A DNA stretch of 64,000 bases, from IMG/VR virus record IMGVR_UViG_3300006846_000010, positions 39,487 to 103,486 of that record. One strand, written 5' to 3'. Positions 26,030 to 33,567 of the stretch are shown piece by piece (position 1 is the stretch's first letter; every line of letters begins with the position of its first letter). Under the pieces are notes generated by a model. That model was not told the origin of the DNA. It worked only from the letters and a program-made list of their open reading frames with translations, and did no database searches. A program made the translations under genes and the position numbers. Origin of the DNA: a virus.

Positions 26030-26350
26030 CTAGGCGGGCGCCGGCTCGGTCGGCGTTACCGCCGGCTGCTCGCCCTCCGGGACGCGCTCCCACGTATGTG
26101 TCGAACCGTTGCGGATCGACCGTACACGCTTGTTGTAACGCAGTCGCCACAGGGAGAGGTAGGCCTCCGACCGGCTGATGCCGGCGACCTCGGCCACGGT
26201 GTTCTTCGTCATCGGCGACGTCAGCACCTCGTACACGTGCTCGTCACGCTTGAGGGTCGCGTCCGGTCGCGGCCGACCGCGCCGGCGGCCTTCCGACTCC
26301 TCACCCGCGCCGGCCGTTGTCTCCGGGCTCGCCTCTGTTACGTCAGTCAC
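26030..26350 (-). CDS. DNA-binding protein with AT-hook-like and winged-helix parts
   Basis: A 106-residue protein starting at GTG 26350. RRRGRPRPD near residue 23 resembles an AT hook. Residues 35-90 (DEHVYEVLTSPMTKNTVAEV and SRSEAYLSLWRLRYNKRV) look like a winged helix-turn-helix with a following beta hairpin. The C terminus is proline-rich. A transcriptional or nucleoid role is likely. It stands alone between two terminator-like or noncoding stretches. Confidence 0.65.
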   Translation of the reverse strand: MTDVTEASPETTAGAGEESEGRRRGRPRPDATLKRDEHVYEVLTSPMTKNTVAEVAGISRSEAYLSLWRLRYNKRVRSIRNGSTHTWERVPEGEQPAVTPTEPAPA

Positions 26351-26388: not shown

Positions 26389-27402
26389 CTACATTAGCAC
26401 ATCTACAGCGGTATCGTCTCGCGCGACCACGCTGCTGCGCGAGACGGCGCTCTTCCAGGCGTGCGTCACATCGATATCATACTCACGCTCGCCGATCAGA
26501 GATCCTACGTGAGTGCCGGGGTTGCCGTCCAGCGCGCGGGCGATCCACCCGCCGATCCACCGGCCGCAGTGCACAGATATTCCCTTTCCCCACGTGAGAT
26601 TGAGACCGCTGACGCCGCGCAGTGGCTTGATCAGCCAGTCGTCCGGGAAGCCGAGGATGCGCGCGGCCTCACGGTGTGTGATCATGCGGTCGAGCCACGG
26701 GTGAATGACCAGCTGCAGCGACGCGCCGGTAATGACGCGCGCCGGCTGCTCGCCGCGCCAGCGCGTCACGGTCGTGAAACCCATCGCGAAGTCGTTGGCG
26801 ACGATCTTAGCCTCACCCTGTGCCATCGACGCCGGTAGCCGGCCGTGCTTCTCGTAGTACCGGCGACAGATCTCACCCAGCGACGCGCCGGGCTCCCAGC
26901 CACAGCCGTCGATCAGGTCGGCCACTCGCTGTGTGAGTGGGTTGCTGACGTGAACGTGGCCGTCCACTGCGCCGGACGCCGACCGCAGCTGCTCCGTCCA
27001 CATGTGTGTGACGGGTGCCCGGTACGGCTGCGCGTGCCACGTCCGCCCGAGAGGCGCGAGGTCTGCTATCACGTCTGCCAGTACGGGCAGTGTTCTCGGC
27101 TGTGGCACCTCGACGCCGAACGGAACCCGCGAGATGAGCCAGAAGTAGCGCTTCCGCTGGGCACATCCGCCCACCGAATACGCGTTGTGCCGGACGTGGT
27201 AGAGCGTCCACCGGTCGCCGGTGTCCTCCTCCACGTGGGCGCGCAGCCGGCGCATGAGATCCAGACCGTCGGGGCGGTTGCGCGCCTGCTGAACGCTCTC
27301 GAAGACGGCGATCGTGGGACGTGCTCGAATGACGTAGTCGGCAAATGCCCACATACACGCGTTCACTTTAGAGTTTGCTCCGCGAAATGACTTGGCGCTC
27401 AT
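26389..27402 (-). CDS. C5-cytosine DNA methyltransferase, C-terminal fragment
   Basis: A 337-residue frame that begins just after catalytic motif IV. It holds the ENV-like motif (TIAVFESVQQA), QRKRYFWLISR (motif VIII) and a C-terminal REAARILGFPDDWLI typical of motif IX-X. The bases just upstream (27420-27403) read CSGFSV in this frame, the rest of motif IV, but the N-terminal half lies in another frame. An independent ATG at 27402 would give an enzyme without the catalytic Cys or the SAM motif, so this alone should be inactive. Confidence 0.8.
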   Translation of the reverse strand: MSAKSFRGANSKVNACMWAFADYVIRARPTIAVFESVQQARNRPDGLDLMRRLRAHVEEDTGDRWTLYHVRHNAYSVGGCAQRKRYFWLISRVPFGVEVPQPRTLPVLADVIADLAPLGRTWHAQPYRAPVTHMWTEQLRSASGAVDGHVHVSNPLTQRVADLIDGCGWEPGASLGEICRRYYEKHGRLPASMAQGEAKIVANDFAMGFTTVTRWRGEQPARVITGASLQLVIHPWLDRMITHREAARILGFPDDWLIKPLRGVSGLNLTWGKGISVHCGRWIGGWIARALDGNPGTHVGSLIGEREYDIDVTHAWKSAVSRSSVVARDDTAVDVLM

Positions 27403-27425
27403 GACGGAAAATCCTGAGCACGGTC

Positions 27426-27659
27426 TTACGGGGGGTTGCCGAATACAACATCACAACCCCCACTGATCACCTCCCACGACTCGGCAGGTCCTATCTGTGC
27501 CTGCCAACTATTACCAAGAAGTGCGCGATTAGCGAGACAGTTTGCTACACCGAAGCCGCCTGGAAGTTCCTTCTTACCAACCAGTTTAAAGCCCGCCTGG
27601 ACCATCCCGAGGGTAAAACCTCCAGCAAACCCAAGAACGTCCACCGCGGTGTATGTCAT
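27426..27659 (-). CDS. C5-cytosine DNA methyltransferase, N-terminal fragment
   Basis: A 77-residue frame starting at ATG 27659, which overlaps the stop of the HNH gene (ATGA). VDVLGFAGGFTLGMVQAGF is the SAM-binding motif I. It ends CDVVFGNPP then TAA at 27428-27426, exactly before the expected catalytic Cys of NPPCSGFS. The missing part follows eight nt later in the -1 frame. Recoding or a simple frameshift mutation are both possible; see findings. Confidence 0.75.
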   Translation of the reverse strand: MTYTAVDVLGFAGGFTLGMVQAGFKLVGKKELPGGFGVANCLANRALLGNSWQAQIGPAESWEVISGGCDVVFGNPP

Positions 27660-28288
27660 GTGTTCACGTCCATAGGTACACACATTCCGTTGTCCTTGTG
27701 GCGTTGCATCCAGCGGGATGCATAAGGTTTACCGCATACCTGGCAGATCACCTTAGGCTCGATACCACGCACACGCACAACACCGTTGACTGTGATGCAC
27801 TTTTTCGGCTGGCAACCACTTGCCTGGTGCCGACGAATCCAGTGCGCTGCGATCTCGACACCACACATTTCACAAATCACCATTCGCCGGTTGGCGCGGC
27901 TGATAGCTTGTCGTGTGTGAAGTGGTAGTGGTTTTCTAAACTGGTGATTGTCTGATCCGTGATGCGCTTTCTTGGCATTCACCTCTGCGGAGAACCGCAT
28001 ACCTTTCGTAGGTGACTCACGTCCGCGAAACGCATCACTTAGCTTACTTCTTGCGACGTCAGACAGCCCGTGGTGTTTTCGGTGACAAAGCACGTGTGTC
28101 ATCGCGAGATTATCTGCGGTGTCATTCGTAACATCATCATCAATGTGATGAATGTTACCGTTCCATGTGCCACGCCCAATCTCTAGCACCGGAATCACAC
28201 AGAAGAAACACGACCAGGGACCGTAACCGTACGCTTTGTGAAACGCTTTAACCGTGCGTCCACGGTTGCGACTCGGGTTTGTTCCCAT
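27656..28288 (-). CDS. HNH homing endonuclease with NUMOD and zinc-finger-like parts
   Basis: A 210-residue protein. GNIHHIDDDVTNDTADNL followed by CHRKHH is the HNH core. GRESPTKGMRFSAEVNAKKA is a NUMOD3-type DNA-binding repeat. Two CxxC-H-C modules near the C terminus (CEMCGVEIAAHWIRRH and CQVCGKPYASRWMQRH) look like zinc fingers. I choose ATG 28288; the longer frame would overlap the dUTPase gene by 130 nt. No ribosome site is seen, but TACAGT seven nt ahead could give a leaderless message. It abuts its probable target, the methyltransferase gene. Confidence 0.85.
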   Translation of the reverse strand: MGTNPSRNRGRTVKAFHKAYGYGPWSCFFCVIPVLEIGRGTWNGNIHHIDDDVTNDTADNLAMTHVLCHRKHHGLSDVARSKLSDAFRGRESPTKGMRFSAEVNAKKAHHGSDNHQFRKPLPLHTRQAISRANRRMVICEMCGVEIAAHWIRRHQASGCQPKKCITVNGVVRVRGIEPKVICQVCGKPYASRWMQRHKDNGMCVPMDVNT

Positions 28289-28301
28289 GGACTGTACTGT
28301 A

Positions 28302-28814
28302 TCAGGTGTTGTGGGTGGTTTCTGATGTAGCGGAGAGTGTACCGGGTCCGACCAGCCGACCGGCTTCCACGCACCAGGCCGGCGTTCCGCCGGTCGCGAC
28401 ACACGACGGGGTGCACCGGACTCCTTGGTCATCGTACGACCGTCGACAGTGCGGGCACTTGCCCGTCACACCGTCGTAGCCCTCGCGCTGGCGTCGCTCG
28501 TTCTTCTCACGCTTTCGGCGGTAGCCCTCGTACAGGTCATCTGCGGTCACGTTAAGGTGCAGCGCGAGGTTCATGAGAAAGTGCCAGCAGTCAACGACCT
28601 CGCCGCGTGCCGCCTCGTAGTTGATGTGACGACTGGTCGCCCAGCTCTTCCAGCCAATCTCATCCAGAACCTCGCCGAGCTCCTTGATAAGCGCGACGTA
28701 GCTCTCCTTGATGTTCGCGATGCGCAGCTCGTCTGACTGACTCTCGAGCGTGTAGCCGTTGATCAGCTCCTGGAGCTCCCGCTGGGCGTGTAACATCTCC
28801 TCGAGGCGATCCAT
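28302..28814 (-). CDS. Dimeric dUTPase / MazG-like NTP pyrophosphohydrolase with zinc tail
   Basis: A 170-residue protein starting at ATG 28814, which shares one base with the previous stop. The helices SYVALIKELGEVLDEIGWKS and ARGEVVDCWHFLMNLAL supply the EExxE...ExxD pattern of all-alpha NTP pyrophosphohydrolases, closest in layout to the dimeric dUTPase family. The C-terminal CPHCRRSYDDQGVRCTPSC looks like an added zinc-binding knot. It would remove dUTP, which fits with the dCMP deaminase and synthase further along. Confidence 0.7.
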   Translation of the reverse strand: MDRLEEMLHAQRELQELINGYTLESQSDELRIANIKESYVALIKELGEVLDEIGWKSWATSRHINYEAARGEVVDCWHFLMNLALHLNVTADDLYEGYRRKREKNERRQREGYDGVTGKCPHCRRSYDDQGVRCTPSCVATGGTPAWCVEAGRLVGPGTLSATSETTHNT

Positions 28815-29008: not shown

Positions 29009-29695
29009 CTAGGTCACCCGGCGTACCGCGTCGGGCGTGCCGATATCCTGCGTTAACACGTGTACCAGCGCGAAGCTGGGCGCCATCTCATTGAGCACCG
29101 GACCGATCTTCTCCTGGCCGGCCAGTGCGTTGAGACCGCGGTACCGGTCGATGACCAGCGGGCCGCACCAGACCGTTACCGCCTGTGTAGCGTCGTCGCT
29201 CCATTTCGCTACCTCATCATCGAGCGGGTCTTGGTCATATCTACGCTCCACCCAGCGGTCGCCTCGGAGACGAGTAAACCTCTCGGCCTCAACCCGGTGA
29301 ACGACTCGCACGCCGACCGCGTAGTTCGCCGCCGTGCATACCGCGTAGACGTCCTCGGGTCCGTGGATGTTGTCGCTCATCAGCACCAGAACGCGTTGTG
29401 TTTGACACAGCTCGAGACCTCGGCGAAGCGCGCGGCCGGGTCCGCCGGTGGCCAGCATCACGCGAATCTCCGGGCGGTGACCCACCAGTTGAAACACCGG
29501 CAGGGCGTTCTCGCCGGCGGACACCACGATCACCCGACGCGCACCCATCGCCAGCGCGCTATCCACCGCGGCGACCAGCAGCGACCTGCCCTCGATGACG
29601 ACGAACGGCTTGAAGTAGGGAGGTACCACCCCGTTCAGTCGCTCACTCTTACCACCGGCGAGAATCACGGCGTCCAACCCGGCGTGGTCGATCAC
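29009..29695 (-). CDS. Sugar- or choline-phosphate nucleotidyltransferase
   Basis: A 228-residue Rossmann-like protein from GTG 29695. It begins LDAVILAGGKSERLNG with a later FKPFVVIEGRSLL, the GG...K signature of nucleoside-triphosphate transferases that make NDP-sugars or CDP-choline-like compounds. LVLMSDNIHGPEDV supplies the metal-binding Asp. It lacks the long C-terminal beta-helix of GlmU-type enzymes. With the HAD hydrolase and kinase-like genes just downstream it forms a small activation pathway. Confidence 0.75.
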   Translation of the reverse strand: MIDHAGLDAVILAGGKSERLNGVVPPYFKPFVVIEGRSLLVAAVDSALAMGARRVIVVSAGENALPVFQLVGHRPEIRVMLATGGPGRALRRGLELCQTQRVLVLMSDNIHGPEDVYAVCTAANYAVGVRVVHRVEAERFTRLRGDRWVERRYDQDPLDDEVAKWSDDATQAVTVWCGPLVIDRYRGLNALAGQEKIGPVLNEMAPSFALVHVLTQDIGTPDAVRRVT

Positions 29696-30303
29696 GCTGT
29701 TTTCAACTCTCTGGTGATAAGTTCTCCTAAGACATCGGCGAGCTCGGCGCGTAGTTGCTCGTAGGTTTGCCCGGTGTAGTGCAGCAACCGGAGACCCGGA
29801 ACGTCCTCGGTGAGTCGCTCGACGGTGCTGCCCATGTCATCAACATATACCACGGAACCGGTACCTCGATGCTTGGCGACGGACATCGCACGCGACAAAA
29901 TCACGCGTCGTGCGTCATACGTTAACTGTGGCTTGACGGGTACGCTTAGACCTAGTCGACGAAGTAGGGTACGTGCACACTCGTGTGACGCAGCCGTTAG
30001 ACACGACACGGTCGCCGACCGCCGAGCATCACCGTACAGCAGGGTACGTGCGAGTCGGGTCGGCGGCAGAGCTAAGGTGTGCGGATCTACGTCACCCAGC
30101 AGGATGCCGTACCACACCTGCTTAGCGGTGTGAACACGCTCAACATCACCGATACCGACCAGATCGCCGAGCCACTCACGGTATGACAAGCCGGCGGCGT
30201 TCGGCGGTACCTCAACACCAACTCGTCGATATGCCTCCCGGTTAAGCGCGTCGGTGTCGGCGAGTGTGCCATCCAGATCAAGGAAGAAACGTAGTTGCGT
30301 CAC
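29692..30303 (-). CDS. HAD-superfamily phosphatase
   Basis: A 203-residue protein with DLDGTLADTD (motif I nucleophile and acid) near residue 9, SCLTAAS (motif II) near 97, and VVYVDDMGSTVERL (motif IV) near 150. The alpha-helical cap between motifs I and II is of C1 type. It overlaps the nucleotidyltransferase start by four nt. Likely removes a phosphate from a sugar or polyol intermediate; 5'-nucleotidase activity is the alternative. Confidence 0.75.
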   Translation of the reverse strand: MTQLRFFLDLDGTLADTDALNREAYRRVGVEVPPNAAGLSYREWLGDLVGIGDVERVHTAKQVWYGILLGDVDPHTLALPPTRLARTLLYGDARRSATVSCLTAASHECARTLLRRLGLSVPVKPQLTYDARRVILSRAMSVAKHRGTGSVVYVDDMGSTVERLTEDVPGLRLLHYTGQTYEQLRAELADVLGELITRELKTA

Positions 30304-31072
30304 CGATCATGCCTCTCACGTCATCTTGAACCTTAGGTGCCGCACATCGTGCGAGGTAGGGTAGGGTGCGTAGTAGGTGAATGACGCACCAGAGTACGGC
30401 CGCGTTCCACTCGTTATCATCTTGCGCGTACGTTTGCACGTGGTACGGGTTGATTCGCGCACTGCCACCGAGCGTGTCGAGAGCTCCCGTTACCTCACGG
30501 TAGCCGTACCGAACCCGCTCCCAGCCCAGCGCTGATTGGAGCATCTTACCGAGGTCCACAGCCCGGATGTCGGGCACCGCCGAGGTCGCGGGAACCGGGT
30601 CGATGATGACCAGTTCGGATGTACCGGGCCTAAACATCACGTTGTCCAGCGTCGGGTCGCCGTGCGTTAGGCACCGTGGAAGTGCGTTCCAGTCGATCGA
30701 CTCGTGCGTCTTTTCCAGCCACAGCTGAACCTCAACACCGACGTCGAACATTCCGAGTAGGTCTGCCACCTTGTCGACCGTCGCCTGCTGTGACCACTCG
30801 ACCTCGGCGGACTGTGACCACACGTGCTGCTCGAGTTGTTCCACGATCCCGGCGAGCACCACACGGTGGTTTAACCACATGTAAGAGATGTCGTCGAGCC
30901 GCTCCATCTGGTAGCCGTGCTCATATACCGACAGTACCTTCGGAACGGCGGGAGACTGGTGCTGACGTAACCACAGTCCCTGGCGTGATGTACGCCCGTC
31001 GTCCGTCCGGCACATCTTGCCGACGCTCTCGAGGTAGTACCGGAACGTGGCGCCCGACGATCCCCTAGTCAC
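30278..31072 (-). CDS. Aminoglycoside/choline kinase-fold phosphotransferase
   Basis: A 264-residue protein with the catalytic loop LTHGDPTLDNVMF and, ten residues on, LVIIDPVP in the position of the metal-binding DxD/DFG. This is the APH/choline kinase fold. The phosphoacceptor is probably small. Its stop lies 26 nt inside the HAD gene and its start inside the neighbouring glycosyltransferase stop. A kinase, HAD phosphatase and nucleotidyltransferase set also occurs in capsule and teichoic-acid decoration loci. Confidence 0.7.
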   Translation of the reverse strand: MTRGSSGATFRYYLESVGKMCRTDDGRTSRQGLWLRQHQSPAVPKVLSVYEHGYQMERLDDISYMWLNHRVVLAGIVEQLEQHVWSQSAEVEWSQQATVDKVADLLGMFDVGVEVQLWLEKTHESIDWNALPRCLTHGDPTLDNVMFRPGTSELVIIDPVPATSAVPDIRAVDLGKMLQSALGWERVRYGYREVTGALDTLGGSARINPYHVQTYAQDDNEWNAAVLWCVIHLLRTLPYLARCAAPKVQDDVRGMIGDATTFLP

Positions 31073-32420
31073 CGGTACCTCGCAGCCCGAGGCGCGCTTC
31101 GATCAGCCGGGCAAAGCGTAACTCCCGAACGGCGTCATTGAAGTGTATGCGCTGGGCGGCTACGAGCTCATACCAGTCGGTGCGACCCGCGTCTGAGCTG
31201 AGGTGCTTAACCCGGTGTACCAACTCGTCGGGCGAGGTGACGCGCAGCCAGTCCTTCAACCACAACGGTGCGTCGCCGAGGATGTTATCCTGGACGTCGT
31301 AGCCGGGGTGAAAGAAGCACACGGTACCGGCCGCGAACGCTTCCCACGGCTTAGCCGTGGCCCAGCCGGTGCCGCTGGCCGGTGAGGTGAAGGTACAGCG
31401 TACGGAGTGAAGCTTAGGTACGTAGTCGCCCCACGGTGCCGGGGTGATCTCGCGGTTGATCTCCTCCTGGCCGGCCTGTGACCACGTGCCGTGAATCCAC
31501 GCCGGTTCCAGTGGTAGTACCCACTCACGCATTACGTGTGACCGGGTTATGTCCTGGCGCACGTAGCGTCGCGTCTCATTCATGAAGAGGCCGAACCCCG
31601 CGCGATCTTCCCAGCGGTCGTTGAACGACAGCAGGTCGCCGAACGGTGTGCTGGGCAAGAGACCGTTGACCTCCAACCGGGCGTATACATTCCGCACGGA
31701 CGCCTTCCACACCTTATCGACATCGCTCGGCGTCTCGACGCCGAGGTCGCACGTGGCAGACCACTCCTCAAAAGCGCCGTTCGGGCCCGGGTCTCCGTAC
31801 CGCGCGTGCTTGATCCTGTGATGATACGTGTGTTGTGCGAGCACCGGGTGACGCAGCGGCCACTTGAGGTCGCGTAACTTGAGGTAGTTGCGCGGATCGG
31901 AGTTGAGCCAGATCTCCTCGCGCTTCCACGGGTTGACGTCGCGCCAGATGTTGATCGCTCGTGTCAGAAACGCGACGTAGTGCGCCGACCAGTCGTGTGG
32001 CTTGGTGTACTTACCGGGTTCACGTACGCCGGGCAGCGGCACGTTGGTCGTACCGTGCTGGCCGGCCCAGAGTACGATGCCGTCGAGCTTCGTTATGAAG
32101 TCGAGCGTTACCGAGTCATAGATGTCTTGCAGAGCGAGGTGGTCGGCCACGGAGTAGTTCGCGTGATTCAAGCCGGTACGGCGCTTGGCGTCGAGCAGCT
32201 GCGGACCCCACTTGATCCACGGGTTGTGCACGTTGCTCGGCAGGCCGACCGACGTGGGCTCCTCGCCGCTGTTCTTTCCGATGAGGTAGAAGTCTGACTC
32301 CGGGTTGCGCCGCGCGAGTTCGCCGATCGTCGCGGCCATCTCCACGTCGCCGCCGAGACTACCGCACTTCGTGATGCTGAGCGGCATCGATCTTCCTATC
32401 TTTCCGTACCCAACACGCAT
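31065..32420 (-). CDS. Glycosyltransferase-like protein
   Basis: A 451-residue protein; ATG 32420 has GGAGGTGATAAGT ahead of it, which rules out longer starts. It begins VGYGKIGRSMPL and KCGSLGGDVEMAATI, then DFYLIGKNSGEE. Near the C terminus are TGWATAKPWEAFAAGTVCFF and a typical donor-domain ending. Related proteins occur as presumptive glycosyltransferases in actinophages. No membrane segment. Paired with the next gene. Confidence 0.6.
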   Translation of the reverse strand: MRVGYGKIGRSMPLSITKCGSLGGDVEMAATIGELARRNPESDFYLIGKNSGEEPTSVGLPSNVHNPWIKWGPQLLDAKRRTGLNHANYSVADHLALQDIYDSVTLDFITKLDGIVLWAGQHGTTNVPLPGVREPGKYTKPHDWSAHYVAFLTRAINIWRDVNPWKREEIWLNSDPRNYLKLRDLKWPLRHPVLAQHTYHHRIKHARYGDPGPNGAFEEWSATCDLGVETPSDVDKVWKASVRNVYARLEVNGLLPSTPFGDLLSFNDRWEDRAGFGLFMNETRRYVRQDITRSHVMREWVLPLEPAWIHGTWSQAGQEEINREITPAPWGDYVPKLHSVRCTFTSPASGTGWATAKPWEAFAAGTVCFFHPGYDVQDNILGDAPLWLKDWLRVTSPDELVHRVKHLSSDAGRTDWYELVAAQRIHFNDAVRELRFARLIEARLGLRGTGD

Positions 32421-32436
32421 ACTTATCACCTCCGTT

Positions 32437-33567
32437 CTAGATCCGGGATGCCGCGACGCCGAAGAACGCACAGGCCAGTGCGGCGGGGTTGTGGTGCGTA
32501 GCGAGCACCTGCCGGTTGTGCGAGGCGTCATATGACGATACGTATAGCGCGTGGTTTACCGCCTCACTCAGCGACCGCAGCTCGCCGGACAGCGCGGTCT
32601 TGAGGCCGCGCGGCTCCCACGGGTACGTCCACTGCCGCAGCACGCCGAGCGTCGCGGGCTCGGTCATGTGATCCGGTACGACGATCCGACAACCCGCGTC
32701 GATGGCCTCCAGCAGGGCGAACTCGGTACCCGCCGAGAAGCCCAGACGCGTCGCCGACACGTGCACGGTGTGATGCAGCGACACATCGTAACCCTCCCCG
32801 TAGGGACCTTCGTAGTGTAGAGGTAGATCAGGCGCGGTCCACGGCTCCTCCGCGCGAAACTTCCGGTCGCCGAGGTACGTGTGTTGAAGACCGTAGGCGT
32901 AGGGGTAGCCGCCACCCGGCGACGCGCCGTGAAGACAGACATCGACGTCGAGGTGCTTGGCCAGCGCGGCAACGTGCGCCACACCCTTGTCCGGCGCGAG
33001 ACGACCGTGGAAGCCGACCAGCGGCGGCTTATCACCTCCAGGTCCGGCCGGAGGATCATACGTCGCCGACCGCAGGTTCCAGGGACGAGATAGCGGCACC
33101 AGCGTCGCGCGGTCGTCACGGACGAGCGCCTCGGGCACGTTGCCCGGGGTCTGCCAGATGACGCCCGTAGAGCGCGGCGAGCGGAGGATACGGTCCCAGT
33201 TGACGGTCGGATACAGGTTTCCGTTCAGCTGGAGCGTCCACGGCGTCTCGAGGAGCTCGAGCGTCTGGTACCACCACTCCTGCGAGCTCGGTGTCGTCTC
33301 CGCCTCGTTGACGTGTACGAGATCGAAGTTACGCGCCAGGTGTGCGATCTCGGCGGGTGTGCCCCAGTGGTCCGGGCGCCACGTCGTCGCGTCGGCGCGT
33401 TTCACGTCGGCGATGTCGCGTCCCCACTTACCGGACGGTCGGCCGGAACGCGTGGGCACGGCGATCGGCGGCGTCGGCCACTCCGGCGGCCAGCCGAGCG
33501 TCAGCTCGCGAATGTGCGTGACGGTGCCTGAGATCCAGAAGTTAGGCACCAGCATGAGTATCTTCAC
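32437..33567 (-). CDS. Glycosyltransferase, GT4 family (GT-B)
   Basis: A 376-residue protein from GTG 33567. MLVPNFWISGTVTHIRELTL is the N-terminal acceptor domain start, PPLVGFHGRLAPDKGVAHVA opens the donor domain, and AGTEFALLEAIDAGCRIVVP is the nucleotide-sugar-binding E(x)7E region. It is a full-length member. It precedes the 32420-31065 gene by 16 nt in the same operon as the kinase, HAD and nucleotidyltransferase genes. Confidence 0.8.
   Translation of the reverse strand: MKILMLVPNFWISGTVTHIRELTLGWPPEWPTPPIAVPTRSGRPSGKWGRDIADVKRADATTWRPDHWGTPAEIAHLARNFDLVHVNEAETTPSSQEWWYQTLELLETPWTLQLNGNLYPTVNWDRILRSPRSTGVIWQTPGNVPEALVRDDRATLVPLSRPWNLRSATYDPPAGPGGDKPPLVGFHGRLAPDKGVAHVAALAKHLDVDVCLHGASPGGGYPYAYGLQHTYLGDRKFRAEEPWTAPDLPLHYEGPYGEGYDVSLHHTVHVSATRLGFSAGTEFALLEAIDAGCRIVVPDHMTEPATLGVLRQWTYPWEPRGLKTALSGELRSLSEAVNHALYVSSYDASHNRQVLATHHNPAALACAFFGVAASRI

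What the first reader, a model, noticed from the sequence alone, without database searches (positions are those of the whole stretch)
27400..27440. Methyltransferase gene broken inside its catalytic motif by 8 nt flanked by matching CCG codons
On the minus strand the gene reads N-P-P then TAA, and resumes with CSGFSV (27420-27403) in the -1 frame, so the expected NPPCSGFS catalytic motif is interrupted. The junction is CCG-TAAGA-CCG-TGC: a stop right after one CCG and an identical CCG just before the Cys codon. A ribosome hop from CCG to CCG would restore NPPCSGFS exactly, the same geometry (stop after take-off codon, matching landing codon) as T4 gene 60, where a homing endonuclease also lies beside the bypass. 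CCCCCCG at 27435-27429 is also a valid -1 slippery heptamer, which would give NPPVRPCSGFS. An HNH endonuclease gene sits directly upstream with an ATGA overlap. A plain frameshift mutation or a homopolymer error is the dull explanation.
Basis: partly seen in the sequence, partly recalled or inferred. Interest (0 to 1): 0.65.

Follow-up and report, generated by a model that had tools for sequence, protein, structure and literature searches.

The report
Repeatedly interrupted phage DNA methyltransferase gene
A phage gene for a DNA-modifying enzyme is cut by a few extra bases that begin with a stop codon exactly in its catalytic site; because three other phage lineages carry different short interruptions within a few bases of the same spot, each on a patch of imported DNA (two of the four with a homing-type endonuclease gene in front), this is probably not a random error but a mobile insertion that the ribosome may jump over.

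Summary
On the minus strand a C5-cytosine methyltransferase (MTase) reads NPP, TAA, and resumes with CSGFS after 8 extra bases (27428-27421). It is not an isolated glitch. About 60 distinct relatives are uninterrupted, but three more IMG/VR contigs (L073, L130, L172), from different MTase subclades, are interrupted within 6 nt of the same point by different inserts of 16, 5 and 5 nt. In all four, the first in-frame codon of the insert is a stop, and the frames on both sides stay open. In the three long contigs it is the only clearly broken conserved gene. All four genes carry a compositionally foreign 5' end whose border lies near the motif. Window and L172 (and uninterrupted L093) have orthologous HNH genes between the MazG-like gene and the MTase. 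This matches a homing-endonuclease cassette aimed at the catalytic motif. Whether the MTase is still made is unproven. A stop-hop would restore the motif in all four cases (exact or synonymous landing codons in two); -1 slippage at CCCCCCG could serve only the window. Purifying selection on L073 and the four-of-four stop placement favour recoding (about 0.5) over dead homing scars (about 0.37).

The parts
27421..27428 (-). 8-nt interruption TAAGACCG; TAA is the first in-frame codon, CCG at 27423-27421 the potential landing codon
   Evidence: direct reading; absent from about 60 distinct relatives
27429..27435 (-). CCCCCCG: the two Pro codons; take-off codon CCG at 27431-27429; formally a -1 slippery heptamer
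   Evidence: CCC CCG in 3 of 4 interrupted and 2 of 61 uninterrupted genes
27426..27659 (-). 5' part of the C5-cytosine methyltransferase, ends NPP*
   Evidence: 60-71% identical to close relatives' N-parts
26389..27420 (-). 3' part of the methyltransferase, begins CSGFSVM; PF00145 match
   Evidence: E 7e-7; phrog_116; only PF00145 gene in the contig
27656..28288 (-). HNH endonuclease with HH-N-H motif, weak NUMOD3 match and C-terminal zinc-finger-like CxxC..H..C motifs; stop overlaps MTase start (ATGA)
   Evidence: phrog_15471 E 3.5e-9; NUMOD3 E 0.03, below cut-off; orthologs beside the same MTase in L172 and L093
28302..28817 (-). MazG/dUTPase_2-like gene that directly precedes the MTase in HNH-less relatives
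   Evidence: PF08761 E 6e-17; synteny
27315..28350 (-). low-GC3 (0.53 against 0.82 outside), presumably imported tract: HNH + MTase 5' part + about 105 nt past the break
   Evidence: changepoint analysis, support ranges 28331-28448 and 27306-27324; composition
27395..27421 (-). predicted 7-bp stem about 7 nt 3' of CCCCCCG (possible -1 frameshift stimulator)
   Evidence: not exceptional against relatives

Best explanation
A mobile cassette made of an HNH homing-type endonuclease gene and the 5' end of its neighbour gene has been copied into this phage by recombination that ends near the methyltransferase catalytic motif NPP|C, the likely target of the endonuclease. The cassette allele carries a short insertion in that motif, which would make it uncuttable. 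The methyltransferase is most likely still made by ribosomes that leave CCG, skip the stop, and re-pair at the matching CCG 8 nt downstream: a minimal relative of the T4 gene 60/mobA arrangement. Shown from sequence: the insertion, its recurrence at one motif in four lineages with a stop first each time, compositionally foreign tracts ending near the motif, and orthologous HNH genes at the same place in three phages. Inferred: HNH cleavage of the motif, immunity by insertion, and ribosomal bypass.
For: Interruptions at the same motif in L073 (TCT|TGAATATGTGTAATCC|GCA), L130 (TCT|TGACT|GGC) and L172 (TCT|TAGCT|GGG). Their nearest intact relatives differ, so they look like separate events. Stop first in 4 of 4: chance about 5e-6, or 1e-4 with a generous per-case stop probability. 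Four breaks within a 9-nt span of about 1,170 nt. HNH orthologs found only in front of this MTase: 2 of 4 interrupted, 1 of 61 others. Foreign 5' tracts ending near the motif in all four (GC3 N-C difference -0.20 to -0.27, as low as only 1-3 of 60 intact genes). In L073 a DNA patch of about 60% identity ends just past the insert while flanks are about 92-94% identical to sibling L063. No other clear frameshift in three long contigs. L073 C-part: 26 silent to 2 replacement codons on its own lineage, pairwise dN/dS 0.06. The window protein shows no excess loss of invariant residues. Precedent: T4 gene 60 and synthetic stop-hops (PMC5009743, PMC3014915).
Against: No expression, peptide or methylation data. 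L130 and L073 lack the HNH, and L093 has the HNH but an uninterrupted motif. The landing codon matches exactly or synonymously in only two of four (ACT and GCT against TCT in L130 and L172). No T4-like gap structure; the hairpin over the Pro codons is not exceptional. The L073 substitutions could predate the insertion. HNH target specificity is untested. Natural hops are extremely rare.
Confidence: 0.5

Rival explanations
1. Dead homing scars: an HNH endonuclease cuts the conserved motif, inaccurate repair or template switching leaves short insertions, the MTase is knocked out, and the allele survives because it can no longer be cut. No recoding occurs.
For: Explains the single site, the tracts and the HNH link. 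Insert ends look like short duplications (CCG..CCG; CT-TGA-CT; CT-TAG-CT), as end filling and joining would leave. A methyltransferase may be dispensable.
Against: A stop as first codon in 4 of 4 is unexpected. Both frames are otherwise open in all four; the L073 C-part evolves under strong purifying selection. About 60 relatives keep the gene intact.
Confidence: 0.37
2. Conventional programmed -1 frameshift at C CCC CCG in the window, giving NPP-VRP-CSGFS, with the downstream stem as stimulator.
For: In-frame heptamer, 7-nt spacer, 7-bp stem; only 2 of 61 intact relatives have CCC CCG.
Against: Adds three residues beside the catalytic Cys. In L172 the same slip loses the Cys; L073 needs +1 and meets a second stop. 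No Shine-Dalgarno-like stimulator 10-14 nt upstream. Downstream folding strength is ordinary.
Confidence: 0.08
3. Split enzyme: the two frames are made as separate chains by termination and re-initiation and assemble.
For: A conserved in-frame ATG lies about 24 nt past the stop; L130 has a TTG and L172 a GTG start overlapping the break.
Against: In the window neither chain would contain the catalytic Cys (N ends NPP, C starts MSAK); in L073 the C chain starts after AWSV. No consistent ribosome-binding site.
Confidence: 0.03
4. Sequencing or assembly artefact, or a chance private mutation.
For: Metagenome-assembled contigs; raw reads not seen.
Against: Four contigs from four metagenomes at one motif; not a homopolymer change; no other clear frameshift in three contigs.
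Confidence: 0.02

Closest known systems
Phage T4 gene 60 bypass with mobA (PMC3014915, PMC5009743, PMC2988022)
   Same: HNH homing-type gene directly upstream; short non-coding insert in a conserved gene; stop right after the take-off codon; matched landing codon; intact in relatives; insert thought to protect from the nuclease
   Different: 8 nt (5-16 in the set) instead of 50; no T4-like gap stem-loops found; different target gene; several lineages instead of one; bypass not demonstrated; the endonuclease gene does not itself split the target gene
Synthetic stop-hops in E. coli (reviewed in PMC5009743)
   Same: matched codons flanking a stop over about 9-11 nt
   Different: laboratory constructs; here natural, recurrent and out of frame
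Magnusiomyces capitatus mitochondrial byp elements (PMC5009743)
   Same: many short inserts skipped during translation, landing match not always perfect
   Different: mitochondrial and many genes; here one phage gene at one site
Free-standing phage HNH homing endonucleases such as MobE and MobA (PMC2988022); nuclease genes at exchange borders (PMC10448857)
   Same: HNH between conserved genes, presumed neighbour-gene target, co-conversion-like tract
   Different: target cleavage not tested; linked to an interruption of the neighbour's catalytic motif
C5-cytosine MTases of Gordonia phage GMA2/GodonK and Micrococcus phage Kurnik
   Same: same MTase family; MazG- or dUTPase-like gene just upstream in GMA2 and near in Kurnik; PPCS(G/A)(F/W)S motif
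   Different: those examined are uninterrupted and have no HNH in front

Membership tests
[quoted passage not shown]
   CCG/CCG in the window; TCT/TCC in L073; only 2 of 3 bases in L130 and L172
T4 gene 60-type programmed bypass | stop codon directly 3' of take-off | tested here: met
   TAA, TGA, TGA, TAG in the four cases
T4 gene 60-type programmed bypass | HNH homing endonuclease gene upstream | tested here: met
   window and L172; absent in L130 and L073
T4 gene 60-type programmed bypass | 50-nt coding gap with take-off stem-loop and SD-like GAG before landing | tested here: not met
   gap is 8 nt; no GAG 6 nt before landing; stem over the Pro codons not exceptional
T4 gene 60-type programmed bypass | nascent peptide signal and measured bypass | not testable with these tools
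   needs expression experiments
dnaX-type -1 programmed frameshift | X XXY YYZ heptamer in frame | tested here: met
   C CCC CCG 27435-27429
dnaX-type -1 programmed frameshift | upstream SD-like stimulator and distinctive downstream structure | tested here: not met
   no SD at 10-14 nt (sequence read directly); a stem is present but ordinary in strength
C5-cytosine DNA methyltransferase (PF00145) | profile match and motif order | tested here: met
   PF00145 29.4 bits on the C-part; motif I FAGGF and IV NPPCSGFS split over two frames
C5-cytosine DNA methyltransferase (PF00145) | continuous catalytic PC motif in one reading frame | tested here: not met
   interrupted between NPP and C
Free-standing HNH homing endonuclease | HNH motif, insertion between genes contiguous in relatives, linked conversion-like tract | tested here: met
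Free-standing HNH homing endonuclease | cleaves the neighbouring gene of HNH-less relatives | not testable with these tools
   needs in vitro cleavage

The most novel reading that the evidence does not exclude
A recurrent family of minimal translational-bypass elements (5-16 nt, stop codon first) arises at one homing-endonuclease target, the catalytic motif of an actinophage-type C5-cytosine methyltransferase, and travels with or without its HNH gene on recombination tracts; ribosomes hop over it, so that the gene is both immune to cutting and still expressed.
Probability: 0.42. Interest if true: 0.9.

Novelty: new variant of a known kind. Interest (0 to 1): 0.72.

Why it matters
Efficient natural ribosome bypass is documented in essentially one phage gene and one group of yeast mitochondria. 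Four lineages with short stop-first interruptions at one presumed homing site would turn a curiosity into a system in which the origin, minimal sequence needs and spread of bypass elements can be tested. Even if the alleles are dead, they would document a hot spot, probably of a homing endonuclease, that repeatedly reshapes the catalytic motif of a phage DNA-modifying enzyme.

Tried and rejected
A chance frameshift or homopolymer error was rejected by recurrence and by the frameshift scan. Loss-of-function decay visible in the window protein: 9 of 157 otherwise invariant residues changed, within the range of intact relatives (0-15). A special RNA hairpin upstream of the break: 8-bp inverted repeats occur 1.5 per kb in the window, and folding energies rank at percentiles 0.11-0.30 of 61 relatives. 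A copied template for the 8 nt elsewhere in the window: only chance-level matches. A suppressor tRNA: the window has three ordinary tRNAs; an odd Pro/Ser-like tRNA in L130's genome sits among degenerate tRNA remnants. TET-type hypermodification partner: no match, but the control failed too, so inconclusive. Interrupted copies in isolate phages: those examined were uninterrupted. Bacterial genomes: no relatives found.

Full report
Observation. The reading of the first stage is exact. On the minus strand the MTase starts at 27659, reads to NPP (AAC CCC CCG) and stops at TAA (27428-27426). TGC TCA GGA TTT TCC (CSGFS) begins at 27420 in another frame and stays open to 26389. The extra bases are 27428-27421, TAAGACCG. 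CCCCCCG lies at 27435-27429, and the HNH stop overlaps the MTase start as ATGA. The window is part of an IMG/VR record of 103,486 bases.

What the genes are. The C-part matches PF00145 and phrog_116 and is the only PF00145 gene in the contig. The upstream gene (27656-28288) is an HNH endonuclease (phrog_15471, E 3.5e-9), with a weak NUMOD3 match and CxxC/H/C motifs at its end. In HNH-less relatives the MTase follows a MazG/dUTPase_2-like gene; in the window the HNH gene sits between them.

Relatives. Scans of IMG/VR with C-part, N-part and C-terminal alignments gave about 60 distinct MTases with an uninterrupted PPC motif. The same scans exposed three further interrupted genes at the same motif: L073 (AAT CCC CCG TGT TCT|TGAATATGTGTAATCC|GCA TGG), L130 (AAC CCT CCC TGC TCT|TGACT|GGC TTT) and L172 (AAC CCC CCG TGC TCT|TAGCT|GGG TTC). 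Each has a stop as the first codon after the break and intact frames on both sides. Their nearest intact relatives differ (L130: L143/L135; L172: L148/L082; L073 C-part: L061/L063; window C-part: L093/L017), and the inserts are different, so they look like separate events. No tree with support values was built for this point. No interruption was seen elsewhere in the gene in any relative of this family.

Not noise. ORFs of seven other genomes were searched against each long contig. The MTase break was the only clear within-gene frameshift in 55, 39 and 38 kb of homology-covered sequence of the window contig, L130's and L172's contigs. Two further signals were a fused or separate downstream gene in the window contig and one weak match (E 6e-7, 44-nt gap) in L130's contig.

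Foreign tracts. In the window a low-GC3 tract (0.53 against 0.82) runs from about 28350 to 27315: the HNH gene, the MTase 5' part, the break and about 105 nt more. The same analysis gives tracts ending near the motif in L172, L130, L073 and L093. As control, 60 intact MTases have a mean GC3 difference between N and C parts of -0.014 (sd 0.085). The window, L073, L130 and L172 have -0.27, -0.22, -0.20 and -0.25, each as low as only 1-3 of the 60. A few intact genes are also mosaic, so the tract is not unique to interrupted genes. L073 against its sibling L063 shows it directly at DNA level: about 92% upstream, about 94% downstream, and about 60% between the upstream gene's stop and about 35 nt past the insert.

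HNH linkage. The HNH genes of window, L172 and L093 are orthologs (window and L093 each 46% identical to L172). A profile scan of IMG/VR returned only the L172 and L093 copies, both in front of this MTase. L093 is uninterrupted, with motif NPPCSAWS; that motif also occurs without HNH (L061, L063, L100), so it is not evidence of immunity by itself. L130 and L073 have no HNH now. More distant HNH genes sit at another gene in L030/L032 and behind the MTase in L140.

Mechanism. A stop-hop fits all four: CCG to CCG (window) and TCT to TCC (L073) are cognate landings; in L130 and L172 the codon before the resumption point is ACT or GCT and shares only two bases with TCT. The -1 slip works in the window (NPPVRPCSGFS, with a 7-nt spacer and a 7-bp stem), but in L172 slippage at the same heptamer loses the Cys, and L073 would need +1 and meets TAA. 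Re-initiation would leave the window enzyme without its catalytic Cys. The stop-first rule (chance about 5e-6 for four) and the strong purifying selection on the L073 C-part (26 silent, 2 replacement codons on its own branch; pairwise dN/dS 0.058) speak for continued expression, though the substitutions may predate the insertion. Post hoc associations (CCC CCG 3/4 against 2/61, p 9e-4; Ser TCT 3/4 against 7/61, p 0.01; HNH 2/4 against 1/61, p 0.008) are noted but not corrected for relatedness.

Comparison. T4 gene 60: HNH gene mobA upstream, insert thought to protect against the nuclease, stop after take-off, matched landing codon, intact in relatives (PMC3014915, PMC5009743). HNH MobA and MobE nick their targets; homing endonucleases favour conserved critical sequences, and co-conversion of flanking sequence is the rule (PMC2988022). 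Synthetic stop-hops over 9 nt are on record (PMC5009743). The present case works like these if expressed. It is not filed as a gene 60-type bypass, because the 50-nt structured gap is not met and bypass itself is untested.

Limits. All interrupted copies are metagenome contigs without reads here; close kin of the window may be hidden from the scans; probabilities were computed after seeing the pattern; the HNH target is inferred from position.

Noticed in passing
L185 11564-11641 (genome of L130): Odd tRNA with a two-base anticodon call (Pro/Ser, gg) amid degenerate tRNA remnants, in a phage that carries an interrupted MTase with a Ser take-off codon; probably decay, but worth a look as a recoding tRNA.
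   Followed up: partly
L032 about 765-1157 and L030, L094-L097: A related HNH gene (33-37% identity) inserted between an ATPase-like gene and the next gene in other phages, so this HNH family occupies more than one intergenic site.
   Followed up: partly
L140 3357-3791: Another HNH gene directly downstream of an intact MTase, overlapping its end.
   Followed up: no
L062, L081, L131, L156, L170: Intact MTases with mosaic low-GC3 5' ends but no HNH in front: possible footprints of past conversion without interruption.
   Followed up: partly
window 29009-33567: NTP-transferase, small-molecule-kinase-like and large unassigned genes (phage Kurnik has glycosyltransferases in the matching place) next to the MTase: possibly a DNA hypermodification cluster.
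   Followed up: partly
window 26030-26350: Small gene matching the C-terminal domain that is fused to the MTase in several relatives (e.g. L002, L008).
   Followed up: no
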